Source of the DNA: Oceanobacillus sp. FSL K6-2867
Lineage (GTDB): Bacteria; Bacillota; Bacilli; Bacillales; Amphibacillaceae
Assembly (NCBI RefSeq): GCF_037963145.1
Contig: NZ_CP150144.1
Coordinates: forward strand, 2,170,001 to 2,234,000
DNA length: 64,000 bases
Reading direction: 5' to 3'
Positions 402 to 12,006 of this stretch are shown piece after piece. The translations under genes were made by a program, and so were the position numbers. Positions within the stretch are counted from its first letter, which is position 1. Each line of letters opens with the position of its first letter. A model generated the notes under the pieces. It saw nothing but the letters and a program-made list of their open reading frames with translations, did not search any database and was not told where the DNA came from.

Positions 402-1472
402 ATGGTCCATACATTTGAATTGAACCACATAACCAACGAAACAAAGGTCATTAAGGTTCTTGTAGAACATTATGAGCTAAATGAAATACAAGAATTGCTT
501 GTTAAGTCAAAGAGGAAGAAGAACACTATAGATATTCCTATAAGTATTCCTGGTTTGATAGCAGTGTCTATTTCTTATATTGGTAACGAATGTTACAGAT
601 TTTACCTTAGAGTGGAACCTCAGTCTTTAATAGCTGGAAGGAGAACGATTAATGTCTTTGATTGTGCATTTGGTTCGGTAGAAAGGCTAAGACCAGTTTT
701 AGATGAATCCATTGAAATTATATCAAGTACACTACCTCAATCAGATCGGTGGTTTGTCTCGCGTATAGATTTTACCAAGAATTTAACTTCTGAGTATGTA
801 AGAGAGTGTGTCGAGTTAGCTAAGAAGGGAAAAGACCCATATCGTTTTAAAGAGACTATTGACAAGTCTGGAAGCTCGTACAGAAAGTCTAAAAGTGTGA
901 TATTAAATTATTATGACAAGCTCGATCATATTACTAAAAAGGTAGATAACATCTCTTTTGATAACCATCTGTTAGAAGAAGCTCATAATATTTATCGTAT
1001 AGAAGTACAGTGCTTAAATCACAAAAAATTAAAGCATATAAGAGAAAAATTTGACTTACCTCGAAAAAGTAATTTATATGACTACTTACGTACAGATATT
1101 GCCGAATGGGCCTTTTTTTCTTACTACGACAAAGTGATTGGAAGAGGAGATTATTACTCATTAGCTCAGGTTTTAAAAAGAATAGAGTCAACAGATTTAG
1201 GTTCGAGGAAAAAGAAAAATATTAAGAACTGGCTCAAGCTGATTGCTCAGGCTAAGGGAATGACTAACGCAAAAAAGCAGTTTGTTGATGGAACAACATT
1301 AGGTCGCACACAAACAGTTGTTCAAGGCTGCTTGGATACTTTTAGAAGCTATGAAAAGGTCTGTGAAGAAATAGGAGTCAATCCTGTAGCGATTCCTAAG
1401 GACTGGGGAATCGATTATATCCCTAATCCGATAAATTCATTAGATTCTAGTAAGATAACCGAGAATAAATAA
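402..1472 (+). CDS. Rolling-circle replication initiator-like protein (phage/plasmid gene II/X or Rep_trans type)
   Basis: The 356-residue product has the layout of rolling-circle initiators of small plasmids, ICEs and filamentous phages. There is a central WFVSRID segment (about residues 117-123). A SxxY...YYDK stretch follows (Y160; YYDK at 170-173), where this family usually has its catalytic tyrosine region followed by a YDK/YNK motif. After that comes YRIEVQCLNHKK, typical of the gene II/X family. Such proteins nick one DNA strand at the origin. The start has GGGGTG eight bases upstream. The next gene starts inside its stop codon, so the two are probably one operon. The family call is by eye, and the exact subfamily (plasmid Rep, ICE relaxase or phage gpII) is open. 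Confidence 0.6.
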   Translation: MVHTFELNHITNETKVIKVLVEHYELNEIQELLVKSKRKKNTIDIPISIPGLIAVSISYIGNECYRFYLRVEPQSLIAGRRTINVFDCAFGSVERLRPVLDESIEIISSTLPQSDRWFVSRIDFTKNLTSEYVRECVELAKKGKDPYRFKETIDKSGSSYRKSKSVILNYYDKLDHITKKVDNISFDNHLLEEAHNIYRIEVQCLNHKKLKHIREKFDLPRKSNLYDYLRTDIAEWAFFSYYDKVIGRGDYYSLAQVLKRIESTDLGSRKKKNIKNWLKLIAQAKGMTNAKKQFVDGTTLGRTQTVVQGCLDTFRSYEKVCEEIGVNPVAIPKDWGIDYIPNPINSLDSSKITENK

Positions 1473-2095
1473 TGAGTGTAGAAAGGATTGATAGAATGTT
1501 TGAATATTTAATTGAGAAGGATCAGGTGAATTTAAAAAGGATTGTGAGCCGTTGGTTGAAGCAATTTATAATAGAACCAACTCTAATGCAACGCACGACA
1601 CCAGAATCATATTTAAAAGGGTTTAATCGCAAGAGAACAGCCGAAAATTGTTACGAGTATTTGGCTCTTATGAAAGAACTAAATAATTCTCTTTTACAAG
1701 TTGATAAGAAGAAACTGGTTAAGGATATCGCCATGTATATCGATCTTCGTACGCCCTTTATTTATAGCCATATGCACTTGAAAACACCTGAGTATCAAAT
1801 TGAGAAGCAGTTATTTGAAGAGGTGCCTTTCCACTATAAATCCAATAATAGCAAAGCTTTATCATTTATAAAAGAGGCTAAAAAGAGCATGGTGCTTAAC
1901 CATAAAACAAAATGGATTAGTGAGAAACCTACTGTGAGACAGATAAAGCTTATTGAGAATAAACTAAAAAAGAAAAAGCAAGTACTTCGAATAAATATAG
2001 AGGAAATCAATAAATACCAAGCTGCTATATTGATCCCTTATCTATTAGAGAAACAAACTTATGATCGAGAAGGCCTTCAAAGTCTACTAGAGTAA
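1472..2095 (+). CDS. Uncharacterised protein coupled to the replication initiator
   Basis: The 207-residue product is basic and mostly helical in character, with a Lys-rich stretch (KLKKKKQVLR, about residues 163-172), and has no recognised domain. Its ATG shares the last base of the rep stop codon, so translation is likely coupled and the function is probably tied to replication, transfer or its control. Length and charge would suit a DNA-binding accessory protein, but this is inference. A strong terminator follows at 2173. Confidence 0.5.
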   Translation: MSVERIDRMFEYLIEKDQVNLKRIVSRWLKQFIIEPTLMQRTTPESYLKGFNRKRTAENCYEYLALMKELNNSLLQVDKKKLVKDIAMYIDLRTPFIYSHMHLKTPEYQIEKQLFEEVPFHYKSNNSKALSFIKEAKKSMVLNHKTKWISEKPTVRQIKLIENKLKKKKQVLRINIEEINKYQAAILIPYLLEKQTYDREGLQSLLE

Positions 2096-3058: not shown

Positions 3059-3220
3059 ATGGCTAATAATATGGATTTTAAGATGGCAGATAATAAGGGA
3101 GAAAACACCCTTATGCTAAAAGCTGAAATAAAAGCAGGCACTAAAATTGCAATTGCATCTGCGTATTTTAGTTTGTTTGCATACATGTACTTTAGCCTAG
3201 ATGTATTTTTGAAGGATTAA
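3059..3220 (+). pseudogene. N-terminal stump of a PLD-domain helicase-type defence gene
   Basis: The 53-residue frame reads like the first beta-alpha units of the phospholipase D-like domain found at the N-terminus of SNF2/DEAD-box helicases of defence islands: a DN-x-GENTL segment, then KIAIASAYFSLFAYM. After that match the frame diverges and stops. The full proteins run to about 1,000 residues, so this is a broken remnant and not a complete gene. It stops 7-28 bp before the AIPR gene, depending on the AIPR start chosen. The assignment is by pattern memory and moderately sure. Confidence 0.45.
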
Positions 3221-3248
3221 TAGAGAAATGGTAGAAAGGCTTGGTTAT

Positions 3249-5012
3249 ATGAAAAATTTAATCGTTAAGAACTTTTTAAGTCAATTCAAAAGCAACTTTG
3301 AATTAGGTGAAGAAAAGGAAGAAATGCTATTTGAACAGTTTATTAATTACTGTGTTTTAAATAACCATGTTATTGATTCAGAGAGAAACTTTCAAGATAT
3401 GGATACAGGGACCGCTAAAGCAATTGATGGAATAGCAATCCTAGTAAACAATAAGTTAGTCTTGAGCGAAGAAGATCTAAATGTATTAATCAATAACAAT
3501 AACATACTTTCAGTAGATTTTATCTTTGTTCAATCTAAGACATCCTCCAATTTTTCTGATGCAGATATTAACTACTTTTTAAAGAACGTTGAAAAATTCA
3601 TTTCTGAAGGTGACTGTTCAATTAATGAACTAGAGAATTTTTGGGAGTTGAAAAATATTATATATAATAACTCCCATCTATTTAGGAAAGGCAACCCTAA
3701 TTGTATAATGTATTATGCTAATTCATCGCCAACTACTGAAATTAGTGCTGATATAAATCAGACGATAAAAGATGGAGTAAAATCTCTAAATGACACAGGT
3801 CTTCTTTCTGAAAATATAACCTTCACCCCGCTTGGTGTTAAAGAGATACAAAGATTATATAGAAAAATTGATGCTGATTTAGAAGCATCCTTTCGCTTTC
3901 CAAAAAATGTATCGTACTCATATGATGGAGATAAAATAACATCAGCATATTTTGGTTTAGTTGATATTAGTGAATATATGAATTTACTCTTTGATGAGGA
4001 AACTTCAGGGGTTAAAAATGTGTTTGAAGACAATATACGGGATTATCTTGGTATAGAAAATAACGAAGTAAATAGTAATATGCAGGATAGGCTCCAGAAT
4101 GAGGAAGCACAACTTTTTGGTATATTAAATAATGGGGTAACTGTTGTAGCTGATGAAATAAAACCAGTAGGGGAAAAGTTCCATTTAATTAACTACCAAA
4201 TTGTGAATGGCTGCCAGACAAGTAATGTGATTTTCGACAATTATAGTAGTTTAAAAGAAAAGAGTATCTCATTACCAATTCGAATTATTTCTACAAAAGA
4301 TGAAGATACTAAGAATGAAATAGTAAGAGCGACAAATAGTCAGACAGGGTTAAAACCTGAGCAGTTAGATTCATTAAGTAACTTCCATAAAATGCTAGAG
4401 GAATTCTATAATTCCAAAAATAGTTTGCAAGAGAAAACAAATGATTACGATGTTTGCATTTATTATGAAAGACGATCTAATCAATATAGGAATGATGCAG
4501 TTCCTCAAACAAGGATAATTAATATCCCTAAACAAATAAAAGCAGTTACTTCCATGGTATTAGATAATCCACATGGTGTATCTGGGCATTATGGGACTGT
4601 TGCTAAAAAGGTTAAAGGTGATATTTTTCAAGAGAGCGATTATGCTGAGCCTTATTATGCAAGTGCGTTATTATTATATAGAATAGAGACTTTCTTTAGA
4701 AAGAATCGGGATTTTAAACAGTTTTCAAGAATGAGATGGCATATTTTAATGACGGTGAAATATTTATCCGGTAATACATCTAAATATTTGAATTCTAAAG
4801 ATATCTATAAATTTTCGAATGATATAGTTATTAAAATTAATACCGAGAGCAAAGCTAATCAGTTAATTATTGAAGCTATAAATCACATTAATCAAATGAT
4901 TGGAAATGAAGGTTTAGATTTAGAAGATAGAAAGGTATTTGAAAGAAAAGAAACAACAGATAAACTAAAGAAATATCTTCTTGAGCTAAATAAGGAGAAA
5001 GTATATATATAA
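3249..5012 (+). CDS. AIPR-family abortive-infection phage-resistance protein
   Basis: The 587-residue product carries the AIPR signature (Pfam PF10592): NNGVTVVAD, then INYQIVNGCQTSNVIF, then RIISTKDE and a VRATNSQTGLKPEQL segment, in the central third. AIPR proteins were named from phage abortive infection genes and are often found beside restriction-modification or other defence genes; their biochemical activity is poorly defined. The ATG at 3249 has AAAGG nine bases upstream and is preferred to the ATG at 3228. The gene converges on the protease gene ending at 5172. Base composition is strongly AT-rich, like the rest of this island. Confidence 0.8.
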   Translation: MKNLIVKNFLSQFKSNFELGEEKEEMLFEQFINYCVLNNHVIDSERNFQDMDTGTAKAIDGIAILVNNKLVLSEEDLNVLINNNNILSVDFIFVQSKTSSNFSDADINYFLKNVEKFISEGDCSINELENFWELKNIIYNNSHLFRKGNPNCIMYYANSSPTTEISADINQTIKDGVKSLNDTGLLSENITFTPLGVKEIQRLYRKIDADLEASFRFPKNVSYSYDGDKITSAYFGLVDISEYMNLLFDEETSGVKNVFEDNIRDYLGIENNEVNSNMQDRLQNEEAQLFGILNNGVTVVADEIKPVGEKFHLINYQIVNGCQTSNVIFDNYSSLKEKSISLPIRIISTKDEDTKNEIVRATNSQTGLKPEQLDSLSNFHKMLEEFYNSKNSLQEKTNDYDVCIYYERRSNQYRNDAVPQTRIINIPKQIKAVTSMVLDNPHGVSGHYGTVAKKVKGDIFQESDYAEPYYASALLLYRIETFFRKNRDFKQFSRMRWHILMTVKYLSGNTSKYLNSKDIYKFSNDIVIKINTESKANQLIIEAINHINQMIGNEGLDLEDRKVFERKETTDKLKKYLLELNKEKVYI

Positions 5013-5171
5013 ATGTGTTGTTTACATTCTATTTACACATCACATTAGAATGTCTTATATTACCAAGTGTCGAAAGACTGAGATTATAAGAGGGGGGTAT
5101 CATAGTGTTTCTCACCAGGAAACCCCCGATTCTCTTATTCTCTTTTCTGCTGGTATATGGCTTGTTATATC

Positions 5172-7637
5172 TCAATATTCAATTGGGATTGTTGTCTTAA
5201 TGCTTGTAGCGATAGGAGTGTATAAATCTACAGTCTCCTCCTCTGTTGTAATTGAAACAATTAGTGAATATCTAATGTTTTTATTCCATTTGCCTAACCA
5301 GGCTCTTTCTCTCCACCAACCAATGGCTGGATAAACACCTACCAGATTACTAGTTGCTAGCTCTGCTGCTGTACCTTCCCAAACATCTGTATGTACTGAA
5401 CCTAGATGTCTACTTTGTTTTCCATACAGCCATTTCACACTACTTCCTGAGCTATCTACATCGTCATCATCCGCTTCAACTGCTGCATTTATTCTGCGTA
5501 AAAATGTTTCTTTAGTATCATTTCCATTTACGTCAAATCTCAAAAGGCACGAAGGGTATCTATATCGATTTTTCCAACCTATTTCTCCTGGACCAGGCTC
5601 TATAAAATAAGATAAGGTAACTTTCATCTTTACATTTTCTTCCCCAAGATTTAGCAATACATCTTTTGGCCAGGGTAGTTCATGTATATGCATATCTTTA
5701 GTTTTATATGAACCGTTAACTTTATCATATGGTTGTAATTCCGATTGCAATATTAGATTCACACTATTGTCTAAACAATAAATTGCTCTATTTAGATCAG
5801 GAACACCATATCCACATATTCTTAATAGCTTCCTATAATCTTCTTTCTTATTACCATCTAAAAATTGTTCCTTCATAGTACTTGTCCATTCAGCAGAATG
5901 GATCATTAATCCTCTGATTGTCTCTGGCCATGCATTGGGATATTTTGCTTGAATTTCAGCAGCCATCCATGCTGCTTTGGCTGTTGCTGCGCTTGTAGCA
6001 TTTATGTAATCAAAATGTCTTTCAAATGGTTTATAAAATGTAGTTAATGATGATAATTCTTCTGATGTATAGCATCCGGATGAGTCCTTAAGAGCATTTC
6101 CACCTTCTAATAATATCTCTGGCTTTATAGGCCACTTATTGTCCCAGATAAATGAAGTTGAACTAAATGGTGAAAGTCCTCCATTTGGTGCTACAACCTC
6201 CATATTCTCATACTGTCTTGATTCAACCTCAGTCTTTTCAGTATATGCACCTACACTTAGAGCATTCCATGATTGAGCAGGATTTTGAACAGACAAAGTT
6301 AAATTGCTTTCAGGGTAATCTTGCCATTCATTACTTTCATTGATATTACCTGCTGAAACGATAAAAAGCTTCTTCTCCTCATCCATATATCCCGATGTTA
6401 TCTCATCGATAGCAGCAGACCACGAAGATGGACTGCCGTCTCCAGTCTCATATTTTGGTGCAGTTACCGCCATACAGATAATCCTCTTTTTCTCAGGGTT
6501 ATTAATAATTTGGTTACTAACAGCTGAAGCAGTAATTGCACCGTACAATTTTGGATCATTTTCTCCATTTGAAGGTACTATTTTACTAGATTCCAGATTA
6601 TGATAGATTTTAATTTTATCACTTGATTCAAGCGCATCTTTTAAATCTCCATATATACTTATCCCTGCCATCCTAGTTCCGTGACCACTGTGATCATCTA
6701 TTCCCCAGCCATTATTATATGTATGACGATCCTCATCTTTTAAAAATGGCTCAATTAGAATGTTACCGTTATTTACACCTGTATCTAATATACATATACA
6801 TACATTTGAGTCACTATCTATATCTAACCGTTCTGATAGTTCCCTTGCCCATTCAGATTGCTCACTATTTTCCATTTCAATAAAGAAACTATTAATTTCT
6901 GCCGCTTTCCTTATCTCAGCAATATCTGCACTACTCATTATTAATTCTTTCAATTCTTTACGATTTGCTTTTACTAACATAACGGATCTTTCTGGAAAGC
7001 GCAGAGTTTCTGGTTGAATAGGGAGATTCAGTGTTTGTGTTATTAGTGTTCTAAACCTTTCCTCAATTTCAGTATCATGGCTACTTAGCCATATTTCACA
7101 CCACTCTGGTTCATCCAAAGGTATCCAGTTAATTTGGCTTGGTGGCCAAAAGGATTCTAAAACGGCTAATTTAATATTTTCGATGCTATTAATAAGTGGT
7201 TGATTCTTAGGGTTGCCTTTTTTGGTTTCCTCTTCAAGGTAATCGGTAACTTTTTTCAAGTAAGCATTCTCTTTGCCTTTTGGAACAAAAACAGTTGCTT
7301 TATTTACTATCTTTTCTTCATTTTGCACTTGTCTTATATTTAACAACCTAATATTCTTTTGTCTATCCTCTAAACTCTTTGAGGCTAAATCGAAGTCTGG
7401 TGAGCTTTCAAATTCGATATAAGTGCCTTGCCGAACTGGCAGTGATACAGCAGAGCGAGATTCATCAATTTCTTTTGTTTCTTCCCACAATCGATCTAAC
7501 TGGCGCTTCAGGTGTAGTCCATGATTTCTACGATCTCTAGTAGGTAATTGGCCATTTCTACCAGTTACCTTCGAGGTGTATGGAACAGAATCTACCTCGT
7601 TATTGACAAATAAGTTATCATATCTATTATCACTCAT
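5172..7637 (-). CDS. ietS: IetS-like subtilisin-family (S8) serine protease of an IetAS defence module
   Basis: The 821-residue protein has a complete S8 catalytic set: Asp285 in ILDTG, His319 in HSGHGTRMAG, oxyanion Asn431 in VSAGN and Ser549 in NATSAATA. There is no signal peptide, so it acts in the cytoplasm. A long N-terminal region (about 270 residues) and a C-terminal beta-rich region of about 230 residues flank the protease. An AAA ATPase gene ends 3 bp upstream and its 3' end holds this gene's ribosome site (AAAGGGGGG). This ATPase-protease pair matches IetAS, first described as a plasmid stability/incompatibility system in Agrobacterium and later shown to give phage resistance (Gao et al. 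2020). The system call comes from gene pairing and domain layout and is strong but not tested. Confidence 0.75.
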   Translation of the reverse strand: MSDNRYDNLFVNNEVDSVPYTSKVTGRNGQLPTRDRRNHGLHLKRQLDRLWEETKEIDESRSAVSLPVRQGTYIEFESSPDFDLASKSLEDRQKNIRLLNIRQVQNEEKIVNKATVFVPKGKENAYLKKVTDYLEEETKKGNPKNQPLINSIENIKLAVLESFWPPSQINWIPLDEPEWCEIWLSSHDTEIEERFRTLITQTLNLPIQPETLRFPERSVMLVKANRKELKELIMSSADIAEIRKAAEINSFFIEMENSEQSEWARELSERLDIDSDSNVCICILDTGVNNGNILIEPFLKDEDRHTYNNGWGIDDHSGHGTRMAGISIYGDLKDALESSDKIKIYHNLESSKIVPSNGENDPKLYGAITASAVSNQIINNPEKKRIICMAVTAPKYETGDGSPSSWSAAIDEITSGYMDEEKKLFIVSAGNINESNEWQDYPESNLTLSVQNPAQSWNALSVGAYTEKTEVESRQYENMEVVAPNGGLSPFSSTSFIWDNKWPIKPEILLEGGNALKDSSGCYTSEELSSLTTFYKPFERHFDYINATSAATAKAAWMAAEIQAKYPNAWPETIRGLMIHSAEWTSTMKEQFLDGNKKEDYRKLLRICGYGVPDLNRAIYCLDNSVNLILQSELQPYDKVNGSYKTKDMHIHELPWPKDVLLNLGEENVKMKVTLSYFIEPGPGEIGWKNRYRYPSCLLRFDVNGNDTKETFLRRINAAVEADDDDVDSSGSSVKWLYGKQSRHLGSVHTDVWEGTAAELATSNLVGVYPAIGWWRERAWLGKWNKNIRYSLIVSITTEEETVDLYTPIATSIKTTIPIEY

Positions 7638-7640
7638 ATC

Positions 7641-8603
7641 TTAAATATCCCCCCTTTTGTAAGCATCCTTTCTTTCTTTAATCATCTTTATTAACAAATC
7701 TTCGTCTATGTTTTCTAAATCAAGTAATATTGCTTCCTTGACAGCATCATTAGTTGCCATAGATATTTCCGCATGACTTAAACTATGAGCGTTCTCTACA
7801 ACCTTATTTAAAGATAAATTTTTATTTTTATATCTACCTATTTTATTTTTTATTAATCTTCTTATTTGTTCTTTACAAGGCAATGTATAATGAATCACAT
7901 CATCAAATCTTCTGAATAGTGCCTGATCTAATAATTTCGGGTTATTTGTCGCAGCAACAATTATACTTTCTGAATTATCTTGTTCAATAAACTGTAAAAA
8001 AGAATTTAAAATTCTACGGATTTCACCAACGTCATTATCGAGGCTTCTTTCTGTACCAATAGTATCAAACTCATCAAATAAATATACAGCTGGATTACTT
8101 GAAATAAAATCAAATATTTGACGTAGTTTTACACTTGTCTCACCCATATACTTTGTAACCAATTTATCCATTACTATTGTGCAAAGAGGGAGGTTGGTTT
8201 CTCCAGCCAAGACAGAAGCAGTTAAAGTTTTTCCTGTACCTGGTTCACCAGCCAATAATATTTTCCTTCTATTTTTTAATCCATGTTTCTTTAGTTTGTC
8301 TTTTTGCCAATACTCCAATAAAATTCTTTCAATACGGGTTTTAATATCTTTACTTACAACAAGTTCAACCAATTTTTTCTCACTTAAATCGGTAGTAATA
8401 AGGTCATCAAGTTTTCTGTTAAATGGAATTACGTTTGTTTTTACTTTGGACCTTTCTACAAGATCTCTAATGTCACGTGCAAAAGATTGGTGACCATTTT
8501 TTGCTTCATATGCTGCTAGCTGTAATACTAGTGTTTTAAACCTGTCCTCGTCATTTTCAAAATGTGACTTGATTAACATTTTTATCTGATCAGCTGTAGC
8601 CAC
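7641..8603 (-). CDS. ietA: IetA-like AAA+ ATPase of an IetAS defence module
   Basis: The 320-residue protein has one AAA+ module: Walker A GEPGTGKT, pore-loop region with KYMGETSVKLR, Walker B VYLFDEFD, sensor-1 ATNN and the FRRFDD arginine-finger segment. The N-terminal 100 residues are helical. The start is one of two adjacent GTG codons; the one at 8603 is eight bases after GGAGG and is preferred over the TTG at 8618, which overlaps the ribosome site. It is the first gene of the pair. In the IetAS model the ATPase partners a subtilisin-like protease; which protein senses phage or which is toxic in this host cannot be read from sequence. Confidence 0.75.
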   Translation of the reverse strand: MATADQIKMLIKSHFENDEDRFKTLVLQLAAYEAKNGHQSFARDIRDLVERSKVKTNVIPFNRKLDDLITTDLSEKKLVELVVSKDIKTRIERILLEYWQKDKLKKHGLKNRRKILLAGEPGTGKTLTASVLAGETNLPLCTIVMDKLVTKYMGETSVKLRQIFDFISSNPAVYLFDEFDTIGTERSLDNDVGEIRRILNSFLQFIEQDNSESIIVAATNNPKLLDQALFRRFDDVIHYTLPCKEQIRRLIKNKIGRYKNKNLSLNKVVENAHSLSHAEISMATNDAVKEAILLDLENIDEDLLIKMIKERKDAYKRGDI

Positions 8604-8941
8604 CACGCTCACCTCCAATCTTTTTTCTTTATTATAACCTATTCTTATTATGGTAAATAAGTGTAAAATTTAGTCTAGGCATTATTGCTGTATTGCTGAA
8701 ATTTAATTCTGTTTCAGATGCCGTTGTTTTCCATTCAAAAATATCTACCGGGTTTAATTACAAGTTACCAATTTTACAATTAGATAACAAAACAAAAAAG
8801 AATAAAGATGGAATATTGTTCCCTTACTATATTTTAGACGTAGGTACAATTTTTAGCTACCCTTAAATCGTTACGGTGAACCTTACCATAAATAATGATG
8901 AAGCAGAGAGGAAAAGGTAGCGATAATGCTACCTTTTCCTA
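8604..8941. other. Intergenic stretch with an unassigned open frame
   Basis: A plus-strand frame is open from 8657 to 8866 without an ATG. It ends in a plausible protein-like tail (FPYYILDVGTIFSYP) and may be the 3' remnant of a lost gene; I cannot name the family. The minus-strand side next to ietA is AT-rich and contains TATAAT near 8635, a possible -10 element for ietAS. The 14-mer ATTATTGCTGTATT at 8681 also occurs in the hairpin before rep (330). Confidence 0.35.
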
Positions 8942-9397
8942 TTAATCAATATATTTATTTTTTAACTGGTCTGATCCAATACCACCGATTACCATTAAAA
9001 CTAATGGTGCAAAACTTACCAAGCCTTTTGGCAATCCTTCTAAAATCATAATAGTTGTACCAACAAAATAATTTAATCCGAAAATAAGTAGTTTTGCTAG
9101 TAATAAAAATACTCCTAACATAAACACACTATCAAAGAATGTTTTCCATTTTGGATATGCTAATTTCTTACTATCTTGAATTACTTGTTCCTTCAATTCT
9201 TTGTCACTCCTCAACATTTCATCTATCGTGATACCGAATAAATCACTCAAAACAATGATAATTTCGATACTTGGATAGTTCTTACCAGTTTCCCATTTTG
9301 AAACAGATTGACGACTCACATGAATTTTTTCAGCAAGATCAGTTTGTGACCACCCTCTTTTTTCCCGTTCCTTTTTTAATCGATCATTAAAAATCAT
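8942..9397 (-). CDS. XRE-family transcriptional regulator with C-terminal membrane segments
   Basis: Residues 1-60 form a Cro/CI helix-turn-helix (WSQTDLAEKIHVSRQSVSKWE). Two or three hydrophobic segments follow (about residues 80-140), giving a membrane-tethered regulator of about 151 residues. The ATG at 9397 has AAAGGTG nine bases upstream and is preferred to the GTG at 9409, which sits on the ribosome site. Many Bacillaceae carry such HTH-plus-TM regulators beside small membrane proteins or transporters. No target can be named here; it stands alone between the defence pair and a decayed region. Confidence 0.75.
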   Translation of the reverse strand: MIFNDRLKKEREKRGWSQTDLAEKIHVSRQSVSKWETGKNYPSIEIIIVLSDLFGITIDEMLRSDKELKEQVIQDSKKLAYPKWKTFFDSVFMLGVFLLLAKLLIFGLNYFVGTTIMILEGLPKGLVSFAPLVLMVIGGIGSDQLKNKYID

Positions 9398-9696
9398 GTT
9401 AGTTATCACCTTTCCTTATTTCCATTATTGTGGGAGTGTATAGCCGAAGTAAAGATAGTTATAGGTGCATCAAGGCGCAACCCCATGTTGCCAATTAATA
9501 AACCCTTGTCTTATCTATGTTATTTTATCCTTAATGATGTAAAAGTAAAAAATACTACACGAAACTATACGTCCTTTATAGCCACGGACTGTTTACCATT
9601 TCATACCTTCTGCATAGTTAAATATGTTATATTTTTTATATAAACTTGATTGACTTTTAATAAGATCAGTCTTCTGCAAACAAGGAGGATTCAATT

Positions 9697-10180
9697 ATGA
9701 TAAGTGATACAGATTTGAAACACCTGCGACGTTGTATTGAATTAGCAAAAACAGCACTGGAGAAAGGTGACGAGCCATTTGCTTCAGTCCTTGTCTTAGC
9801 CAATGGAGATGTTCTTGCAGAAGACCATAACCACGTTGCAGATGGTGACCATACCCAACACCCGGAATTTGCTTTGGCGAGATGGGCAGCCAGCAACATG
9901 ACACCTGAAGAAAGAAGCAAGGCGACAGTATATACCCTCTGGCGAACATTGTCCTATGTGCGCTGCGGCCCACGGCTGGGTTGGTTTAGGTAGGATCGTT
10001 TATATTAGTTCGTCCGAACAGTTGGTACAATGGTTAAGTGAAATGGACGTTACTCCATCACGTGTTCGGAATCTCCCCATTCAAGATGTTATTCGTGGTA
10101 CCACAGTAGATGGACCTGTTCCTGAACTAGCGGAGCAAGTTCGTGAACTACATCGTCAGTTTTATGCAAAAAAAGATTAA
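9697..10180 (+). pseudogene. Nucleoside (CMP/dCMP-type) deaminase, frameshifted
   Basis: Two overlapping frames together make one zinc-dependent nucleoside deaminase of about 160 residues. The first frame holds the N-terminal half and the HPE version of the zinc-binding H(A/P)E motif (QHPEFALAR). The second holds the CPMC cysteine pair and the C-terminal half. They join at the CCC run near 9935-9937: dropping one C restores a continuous TSGEHCPMCAAAH sequence. As it stands, translation ends soon after 9993 without the cysteines, so no active enzyme is expected. A sequencing error in the C-run is the main alternative. The ribosome site is AAGGAGG. Confidence 0.75.
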
Positions 10181-11201: not shown

Positions 11202-12006
11202 TACCAGCAGTACTTGAAGCATGGTTCCCGGGTATGGAGGATGGCAATGCCGTCGCTAACCTGCTTTACGGTAAGGTAAATCCTTCCGGTAAGCTGCCTA
11301 TGACGTTTGGTGCTCTACTGAGCATGAGGCCGCATTTGCAACAGAGGAGCAGTTCCCTGGAACTCGTCAAGATACTGGCAAGCCAGGTGGTCCGGGCGCA
11401 TATGGTGACGGTTCTGATCAGTTAATTGCTCAATACACAGAGGGGCTTGAAATGGGTTACCGCTGGTATGAGGCCAACAATGTGGAACCAGTCTTCCAAT
11501 TCGGATACGGCTTGTCATACACGACCTTTGAGTTTGAGGATGACAATCTAAAGGTGAAGAAAGTCCGCAGAGAAGCCGATGGATCAGGGGAATGGAAGAA
11601 TAAAGGCAAAAACGGATCGCCTTCTGGTATTGACGTATCCTTTACCGTCACAAATACCGGTGATGTTGCAGGAAAAGAAGCCGCACAGGTTTACCTGACA
11701 CTGCCGAACAAGGCAGGACAGCCGAGCAAGCGACTTGTTAACTTCGAGAAAGTTGACGTTAAGCCAGGTGAGAGTCAGCGCGTAACTATAAGGATTAATC
11801 AAGCTGACTCTAACCATCCTTTTTCTTATTTCATTCCGGAAGATCCAGACAACTTGGAGAACTGGGCTGATGGCGAATGGGCAACCCTTGATGGAAAATA
11901 CAGCGTACATGTCGGTGGTTCATCGGCAGATACTCCGCTGGATAAGACTTTCCCATTGAATTTCAAACTCAACAAGGACAAAGGCAAAGGGAAACCTAAT
12001 CGGTAG
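11202..12006 (+). pseudogene. C-terminal remnant of a GH3 beta-glucosidase, truncated and frameshifted
   Basis: The first frame encodes the end of the GH3 C-terminal sugar-binding domain ([19 protein letters not shown], then [10 protein letters not shown]). A frameshift within 11309-11314 moves the match to another frame, which continues with EGLEMGYRWYEANN, FGYGLSYTTF and a fibronectin III-like domain (SFTVTNTGDVAGKEAAQVYL). The N-terminal catalytic barrel, including the nucleophile Asp, is missing. The DNA is visibly richer in G+C than its neighbours, which suggests transfer from another source. It cannot encode an active enzyme. Confidence 0.8.

What the first reader, a model, noticed from the sequence alone, without database searches (positions are those of the whole stretch)
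5172..8603. IetAS-type AAA-ATPase/subtilisin defence pair in a Bacillaceae mobile region
The sequence shows an AAA+ ATPase followed 3 bp later by an 821-residue cytoplasmic S8 protease with an intact triad. This layout is that of IetAS, known as a plasmid stability system and as an anti-phage system. The protease has about 270 N-terminal and 230 C-terminal residues of unassigned function that could be sensor or effector modules. How the pair works is not settled in the literature I know.
Basis: partly seen in the sequence, partly recalled or inferred. Interest (0 to 1): 0.72.

Follow-up and report, generated by a model that had tools for sequence, protein, structure and literature searches.

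The report
IetAS protease pair on SCC-like island
A bacterial chromosome carries a known kind of two-gene defence or self-killing module, an ATP-using protein paired with a subtilisin-type protease, on a small mobile island inserted at the same spot that methicillin-resistance cassettes use; it is a new member of a known family whose working is still unsolved.

Summary
Confirmed. On the minus strand lie an AAA+ ATPase (7641-8603) and, 3 nt behind it, an 821-aa S8 protease (5172-7637) with intact triad. PADLOC names both (IetA 2.7e-72, IetS 1.6e-33); both score far below NCBI's narrow IteA/IteS cut-offs, so this is a divergent member of the wider family. New here: (1) the pair is cargo of a 14,011-bp island inserted in the 3' end of rlmH beside a Ccr-like serine recombinase, with att repeats and an empty site in a relative; an AbiU gene converges on it. 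(2) IetA lies directly upstream of IetS in 76 of 80 relatives, the other four starting at contig edges; catalytic residues 103/103; IetA has a PAN/p97-type core with an aromatic pore loop (71/71). (3) The protease's extra regions look like conserved architecture, not a hypervariable sensor. (4) Type I restriction genes accompany 14 of 70 relatives and 3 of 10 in a second sample. Best reading: IetS is a toxic cytoplasmic protease held off by IetA and released on phage attack or island loss. That polarity is reported by others for homologues; trigger, substrate and this copy's activity are untested.

The parts
5172..7637 (-). ietS: 821-aa S8 (subtilisin-type) protease; catalytic domain about aa 277-620, C-terminal beta-rich part about aa 625-800, N-terminal region aa 1-270 with a beta-alpha-beta-beta-alpha-beta stretch at aa 178-244
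   Evidence: PADLOC IetS 1.6e-33; Pfam S8 3.8e-63; triad 103/103; AF2 pLDDT 87.8; fold matches
7641..8603 (-). ietA: 320-aa AAA+ ATPase, GTG start, immediately upstream of ietS
8610..8616 (-). GGAGGTG ribosome-binding site ahead of ietA (a TATAAT hexamer at 8631-8636 has no well-spaced -35)
   Evidence: read from sequence; the consensus scan of 4900-9000 found 16 promoter-like sites against 18.6 in shuffles and none ahead of ietA
8875..8894 (+). attR: right end of the island, GGTGAACCTTACCATAAATA, a 19-of-20 copy of the rlmH 3' end
   Evidence: repeat search; alignment to the empty site of relative G003/L011
1..8894 (.). the part of the 14,011-bp rlmH-inserted island that lies in the window (rlmH, attL and the Ccr-like recombinase lie left of it; attL starts 5,137 bp before window base 1)
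   Evidence: GC 33.0% against 41.6% and 39.3% in the flanks
3228..5012 (+). AbiU/AIPR-type abortive-infection gene, converging on ietS (159-bp gap)
   Evidence: PADLOC AbiU 1.1e-116; Pfam AIPR 2e-47
402..1472 (+). 356-aa island ORF of unknown function
   Evidence: no convincing hit in PADLOC, Pfam, PHROGs, NCBIfam or PDB sequences
1472..2095 (+). 207-aa island ORF of unknown function
   Evidence: no hit
8942..9409 (-). HTH_3 regulator just outside the island; chromosomal, next to rlmH in the empty site
   Evidence: beside rlmH in L011

Best explanation
This is an IetAS pair carried by an SCC-like integrative island. IetS is a cytoplasmic subtilisin-type protease that harms the cell when unrestrained. 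IetA is a PAN/p97-type AAA+ protein, expected to act as a ring, that uses ATP to hold or remodel IetS into an inactive state, much as TRIP13 keeps HORMA-type defence switches off (comparison recalled). When IetA is depleted or blocked, by an infecting phage or because the island has been excised and lost, IetS cleaves host or phage proteins and stops the cell, which protects the clone and the island together. Shown here: both genes, the constant pairing, intact catalytic and ATPase residues, the island and its ends. Reported by others for homologues: toxicity of the protease and neutralisation by the ATPase. Inferred: ring assembly, the way IetS is kept off, trigger, substrate, and that this particular copy works.
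Against: No toxicity, neutralisation or phage test of this copy was found or possible here. Homology of the tested pairs to this one rests on PADLOC, on an Agrobacterium pAt copy (44%/38%) and on the papers' descriptions, not on direct comparison. The mycoplasma paper says its tests in E. coli and B. subtilis had clear limitations. The SGI1 pair showed no post-segregational killing from its own promoter, and SGI1 was not lost without it unless an IncA/C plasmid was present. The aromatic pore loop and PAN-like fold would equally fit an unfoldase that feeds substrates into IetS. The fused two-protein model (pTM 0.61) came without coordinates or PAE, so no interface is shown. Broken copies are uninformative: in 4 of 5 degraded pairs IetS is broken and IetA intact (L083, L108, L164, L167 against L073), but IetS is 72% of the pair's length, so chance gives about that; assembly errors are not excluded.
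Confidence: 0.62

Rival explanations
1. Island addiction rather than anti-phage defence: the pair is a toxin-antitoxin module whose selected role is to stabilise the excisable island.
For: SGI1's homologous sgiAT stabilises an excisable chromosomal island when an IncA/C plasmid is present. The pair here sits at the very end of an island with a Ccr-like recombinase. 339 of 477 plasmid records with IetS relatives are typed conjugative.
Against: SGI1 without sgiAT was not lost in 350 generations in the absence of the plasmid, and sgiAT gave no killing effect from its own promoter. Relatives often adjoin type I restriction genes (14 of 70), Drt2 follows the pair in L160, and AbiU adjoins this one, which points to defence. 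The two roles are not exclusive. Excision of this island was not tested.
Confidence: 0.35
2. Two-part ATP-dependent protease: IetA unfolds and threads phage or host proteins into IetS, a subtilisin-based counterpart of PAN-20S or ClpXP.
For: PAN/FtsH/p97-like AAA core, aromatic-hydrophobic-Gly pore loop in 71 of 71, constant pairing.
Against: In homologues the protease is reported toxic without the ATPase, so it seems not to need it. IetA's C-terminus is variable and keeps no terminal HbYX-type docking motif (mean entropy 2.58; motif recalled). The subtilase fold is not known to form a closed chamber (recalled).
Confidence: 0.2
3. Restriction-linked guard: IetAS senses the state of a type I restriction complex and is a second line of defence when restriction is blocked.
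For: hsd genes within the fetched stretch in 14 of 70 loci, 8 of them with the pair ahead of hsdR on the same strand; 3 of 10 in a second Bacillota sample, including L168, whose IetS is 73% identical.
Against: 56 of 70 loci show no such genes (many are short contigs; 30 of the 39 with 3 kb or more on both sides show none), nor does this island; the own genome's one HsdR match lies about 240 kb away. Nesting may only mark a shared defence hotspot.
Confidence: 0.15
4. Housekeeping protease/chaperone pair.
For: Broad phylum spread.
Against: 5 of 299 genomes of the order and 9 of 398 of the phylum, own included; island with an empty site in a close relative.
Confidence: 0.02

Closest known systems
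IetAS (pTiC58 toxin-antitoxin pair; later filed as an anti-phage system)
   Same: Order and kind of both genes; PADLOC IetA and IetS models hit both. A copy on the conjugative plasmid pAtCFBP7129c of Agrobacterium is 44.1% (IetA, 87% covered) and 37.6% (IetS, 98% covered) identical.
   Different: Below NCBI's narrow equivalog cut-offs (IteA 205.2 of 510 bits, IteS 60.5 of 900); chromosomal SCC-like island instead of a plasmid. The pTiC58 proteins themselves were not compared.
sgiAT of Salmonella genomic island 1 (S026/S025)
   Same: AAA+/S8 pair on an excisable chromosomal island; described there as IetA/IetS homologues.
   Different: SGI1 is another kind of island that depends on an IncA/C helper; direct sequence comparison not made here.
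[quoted passage not shown]
   Same: Same gene order and type; toxicity and neutralisation reported.
   Different: Sequence comparison not made; likeness taken from the paper's description.
SCCmec / Enterococcus cassette chromosome (carrier)
   Same: Insertion in the 3' end of rlmH, short att repeats, Ccr-type large serine recombinase.
   Different: One recombinase gene seen; 296.6 bits to CcrB against a cut-off of 900; different cargo.
TRIP13-HORMA module of CBASS
   Same: An AAA+ remodeller that holds a defence effector off (recalled); TRIP13 models match IetA, weaker than IetA models (6.2e-14).
   Different: No HORMA protein or cyclase seen in the island; a likeness of working only.

Membership tests
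IetAS (wide, PADLOC) | AAA+ ATPase gene directly upstream of and co-directional with an S8 protease gene | tested here: met
   76 of 80 relatives, the other 4 at contig edges
IetAS (wide, PADLOC) | IetA and IetS profiles as best hits | tested here: met
   IetA 2.7e-72, IetS 1.6e-33; PADLOC's own score thresholds were not shown
IteA/IteS anti-phage equivalogs (narrow, NCBIfam NF042959/NF042956) | Scores above the curated cut-offs | tested here: not met
   205.2 of 510 and 60.5 of 900 bits; not filed there
IetAS | Intact Asp-His-Ser triad and Walker A/B | tested here: met
   own residues printed
IetAS | IetS toxic alone, neutralised by IetA | not testable with these tools
   reported by others for SGI1 and mycoplasma pairs
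IetAS | Protection against phages | not testable with these tools
   association reported for another copy
SCC-like element | Insertion at the 3' end of rlmH with att direct repeats and an empty site elsewhere | tested here: met
SCC-like element | Ccr-related large serine recombinase next to rlmH | tested here: met
   CcrB 3.5e-88, CcrC 8.7e-80; rlmH beside the recombinase in 20 of 30 fetched loci, own included
SCCmec Ccr equivalogs (NCBIfam) | Scores above the CcrA/B/C cut-offs | tested here: not met
   296.6 of 900 (CcrB), 268.8 of 900 (CcrC), 142.1 of 700 (CcrA); hence 'SCC-like', not SCC
AAA+ protease (PAN-20S/ClpXP type) | Aromatic-hydrophobic-Gly pore loop 1 in the ATPase | tested here: met
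   [FY]152-[ML]153-G154 in 71 of 71; meaning of the motif recalled
AAA+ protease (PAN-20S type) | C-terminal HbYX docking motif | tested here: not met
   C-terminal 20 residues variable, mean entropy 2.58; own end RGDI
AbiU (neighbour 3228-5012) | Profile match over the full length | tested here: met
   PADLOC AbiU 389.1 bits, profile 2-534 of 537

The most novel reading that the evidence does not exclude
IetAS is a distinct class of AAA+-controlled protease machine: a PAN-like unfoldase ring dedicated to a subtilisin-fold protease, which acts as a back-up fuse wired into type I restriction loci (hsdS-ietA-ietS-hsdR) and is carried without them, as here, on SCC-like islands, where loss of the island is a second trigger.
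Probability: 0.14. Interest if true: 0.78.

Novelty: new member of a known kind. Interest (0 to 1): 0.42.

Why it matters
IetAS is counted in genome surveys, yet two papers whose passages I read say its mechanism is unknown. This copy is a workable test case: a Shouchella-like background (inferred only from the nearest named homologues), a defined island, and clear residues to mutate. The repeated place of the pair beside hsd genes, often ahead of hsdR, is a concrete hint about a partner or trigger. It also shows an SCC-like rlmH island outside staphylococci and enterococci with defence-type cargo.

Tried and rejected
Housekeeping reading: rejected on patchy distribution and the island.

Hypervariable sensor in the N-terminal 270 residues: segment entropy is high only at aa 1-60, 181-210 and the last 11 residues (2.45-2.61; all other segments 2.00 or less); aa 601-810 is as conserved as the protease core. 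The alignment holds close to moderately distant relatives (42-95% identity), so a sensor in more distant ones is not excluded.

Names for the N- and C-terminal pieces of IetS and the N-terminus of IetA: only chance-level Pfam hits at E up to 10. Many homologues carry a newer Pfam label, PF27160, that the library here does not hold. VIA-align says parts outside 252-627 of IetS were barely tested.

Two-protein fold: I read IetA's stop as Gln so that IetA and IetS, which are in frame, could be modelled as one chain with in-frame relatives as paired rows. No coordinates or PAE are returned, so nothing can be said on an interface; pTM 0.61 (0.75 for IetS alone) is no evidence of docking.

In-frame coupling as a signal: 25 of 70, about the one third expected by chance. 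Rejected.

Broken-copy asymmetry: 4 of 5, as expected from gene length. Rejected as evidence.

AbiU as a regular partner: no AbiU relative (tblastn 1e-5) in the stretches held for the 80 loci. The pairing seems local.

Viral structure library with IetS: 16 matches at E 0.001 or less, mostly named as S8/subtilase proteins; nothing that names a target. Phage records: 6 of 50,697, one with 80% coverage.

Literature on mechanism: and 97 for the restriction link, listed no paper that I could recognise as a mechanistic study of IetAS; I read passages of 6 papers only, and subscription papers and preprints are not held, so this is no proof of absence. One search looked for rlmH cassettes in Bacillaceae or Shouchella and listed two papers, not read.
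Full report
1. The observation. Window 5172-8603 (minus strand) holds ietA (7641-8603, 320 aa, GTG, with GGAGGTG at 8610-8616) and ietS (5172-7637, 821 aa), separated by GAT between the TAA of ietA and the ATG of ietS. Pfam: AAA 1e-28 and Peptidase_S8 3.8e-63. PADLOC: IetA 2.7e-72 (profile 4-322 of 374) and IetS 1.6e-33 (profile 243-781 of 795). NCBIfam's narrow equivalogs IteA/IteS match far under their cut-offs (205.2 of 510; 60.5 of 900 bits).

2. The carrier. The genome (4,401,831 bp, one contig, unnamed; nearest named IetS homologues Shouchella clausii, 95%, and Bacillus paralicheniformis, 91%) has rlmH at L007:14396-14884 and beside it a 581-aa large serine recombinase frame (L007:14771-16516, minus). 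Twenty of the last 21 bases of rlmH recur with one mismatch at window 8875-8894. The two copies start 14,011 bp apart. In relative G003 (96% identical in the right flank) rlmH is followed directly by the HTH gene that here lies at window 8942-9409, and both flanks align to this empty site up to and from the repeat; the repeat core itself differs from G003 at three or four bases. The island is 33.0% GC against 41.6% and 39.3% in the flanks. The recombinase's best NCBIfam matches are SCCmec CcrB (3.5e-88), CcrC (8.7e-80) and CcrA (2.7e-41), all below their cut-offs. Relatives at E<=1e-60 occur in 45 of 299 genomes of the order, and in 20 of the 30 loci fetched (own included) rlmH lies beside the recombinase (the 10 others show no rlmH within about 1.5 kb). 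This is the site used by SCCmec and the Enterococcus cassette chromosome (passages read, PMC6222049). I call it SCC-like. Its cargo in the window includes two ORFs without a convincing hit (402-1472, 1472-2095), an AbiU/AIPR gene (3228-5012, PADLOC AbiU 1.1e-116) and, converging on it with a 159-bp gap, ietAS, whose upstream side ends at attR.

3. Distribution. IetS at E<=1e-40 is in 5 of 299 genomes of the order, and at E<=1e-60 with a profile in 9 of 398 of the phylum, own included in both. In plasmid records 477 of 72,556 have a match, all under 60% identity; 339 of these 477 are typed conjugative. Phage records: 6 of 50,697, one with 80% coverage.

4. The pair. In 76 of the 80 loci tblastn (1e-5, co-directional hits only were taken) finds IetA, each time directly upstream of IetS. 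The other 4 begin at contig edges: L033, L057, L101, and L064, which still holds the C-terminal piece of IetA. Seventy loci hold both genes complete; spacer -4 to 99 nt, 55 of 70 at 10 nt or less. Dropped before this count, besides those 4: L079 (IetA cut by the contig edge), L063 and L102 (IetS cut), L073, L083 and L108 (frameshift or stop).

6. Context of relatives. Around the 70 pairs, 555 further ORFs of 100 aa or more were found; the only families recurring in more than three loci are HsdM (12 loci), HsdR (12) and HsdS (10) (representatives named by Pfam; 8 HSDR_N and 7 Methylase_S among the 124 nearest neighbours; PADLOC type I hits). Fourteen of 70 loci have at least one. In 8 of these (L031, L051, L053, L080, L082, L092, L093, L100) the pair lies ahead of hsdR on the same strand, mostly behind hsdS or hsdM (L093 has only the pair and hsdR on its contig). 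In the other 6 the order differs (for example M-S-R-ietA-ietS in L062, opposite strand in L077). Among the 39 loci with 3 kb or more on both sides, 9 have hsd genes. A second sample: of 12 non-own hits of the order and phylum searches I fetched 11 (G660, a fragment, was not); L151 holds only the pair; of the remaining 10, 3 have hsd genes (L159, L163, L168), two of them with the pair behind hsdR. None of these contigs has the length of one of the 80 records, but I did not test independence further. For scale, 96 of 199 Bacillota genomes have any HSDR_N match, so a random 18-kb window should hold one in roughly 1% or less (my estimate, not a computed control). Defence genes cluster anyway, so this shows linkage, not a joint mechanism. 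Of 124 nearest neighbours 3 are phage-type integrases. In L160 Drt2 follows the pair. Plasmid copies looked at (5 of 477 records) lie among transposases, integrases or metabolic genes, without hsd genes in the annotated stretch.

7. Working. From others' work on homologues: SGI1's S025 lowers transformation 100- to 1000-fold and the pair is reported as a functional toxin-antitoxin system that helps keep SGI1 when an IncA/C plasmid is present; without the plasmid no loss was seen in 350 generations even when sgiAT was deleted, and its own promoter gave no killing effect (passages, PMC5006074). In a synthetic mycoplasma the ATPase gene of such a pair could not be deleted alone, while the protease or the pair could; tests in E. 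coli and B. subtilis are said to have had clear limitations (passages, PMC8562856). A Pf prophage IetAS is associated with phage resistance, 'mechanism of action remains unknown' (passages, PMC11878078); a Salmonella survey says the mechanism is still to be described (passages, PMC9958689). The founding pTiC58 paper is not held, and the 2020 anti-phage report is recalled only. This polarity makes IetA the restraint. Its unfoldase-type pore loop makes active remodelling of IetS the likeliest way, rather than simple masking. A feeding machine is the main mechanistic rival.

8. Verdict. A well-supported, divergent IetAS on a newly delimited SCC-like island. The pair is a new member of a known kind; the island setting and the restriction linkage are the new information.

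Noticed in passing
window 3228-5012: AbiU/AIPR abortive-infection gene converging on ietS, same island.
   Followed up: partly
L007:14771-16516: The recombinase frame runs on antisense through the 3' end of rlmH; in three 61%-identical relatives next to rlmH (L117-L119) stops interrupt the match, so the C-terminal extension here may come from the integration junction.
   Followed up: partly
L031, L051, L053, L080, L082, L092, L093, L100 and others; L159, L163, L168: IetAS relatives repeatedly adjoin or sit inside type I restriction operons, in eight cases ahead of hsdR.
   Followed up: yes
L007:24-1412, 3136-4617, 4789-7503, 7632-9155: Four neighbouring enzyme-like ORFs end in a similar tail of about 60 residues (...LHLTAV..YE....K..KHLEGF..LLDQ...), seen by eye in the translations.
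   Followed up: no
window 9697-10180: A cytidine/guanine-deaminase-like gene appears split between two overlapping frames (dCMP_cyt_deam_1 1.4e-05 in the first).
   Followed up: no
window 11452-12006: C-terminal remnant of a family 3 glycoside hydrolase (Fn3-like 3.7e-15; GH3-type models).
   Followed up: no
window 402-1472 and 1472-2095: Two overlapping island ORFs, 356 and 207 aa, with no convincing hit in any library tried.
   Followed up: partly
L007:11079-12365: A TnpB-like (IS200/IS605 type) ORF left of rlmH, by impression from the translation; not scanned.
   Followed up: no
G000 C1: Five other S8 protease matches in the genome, none of them near the island.
   Followed up: no
P0003, P0004, P0006 and other homologues: Carry a newer Pfam label, PF27160, besides PF00082; the family is not in the library here.
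   Followed up: partly
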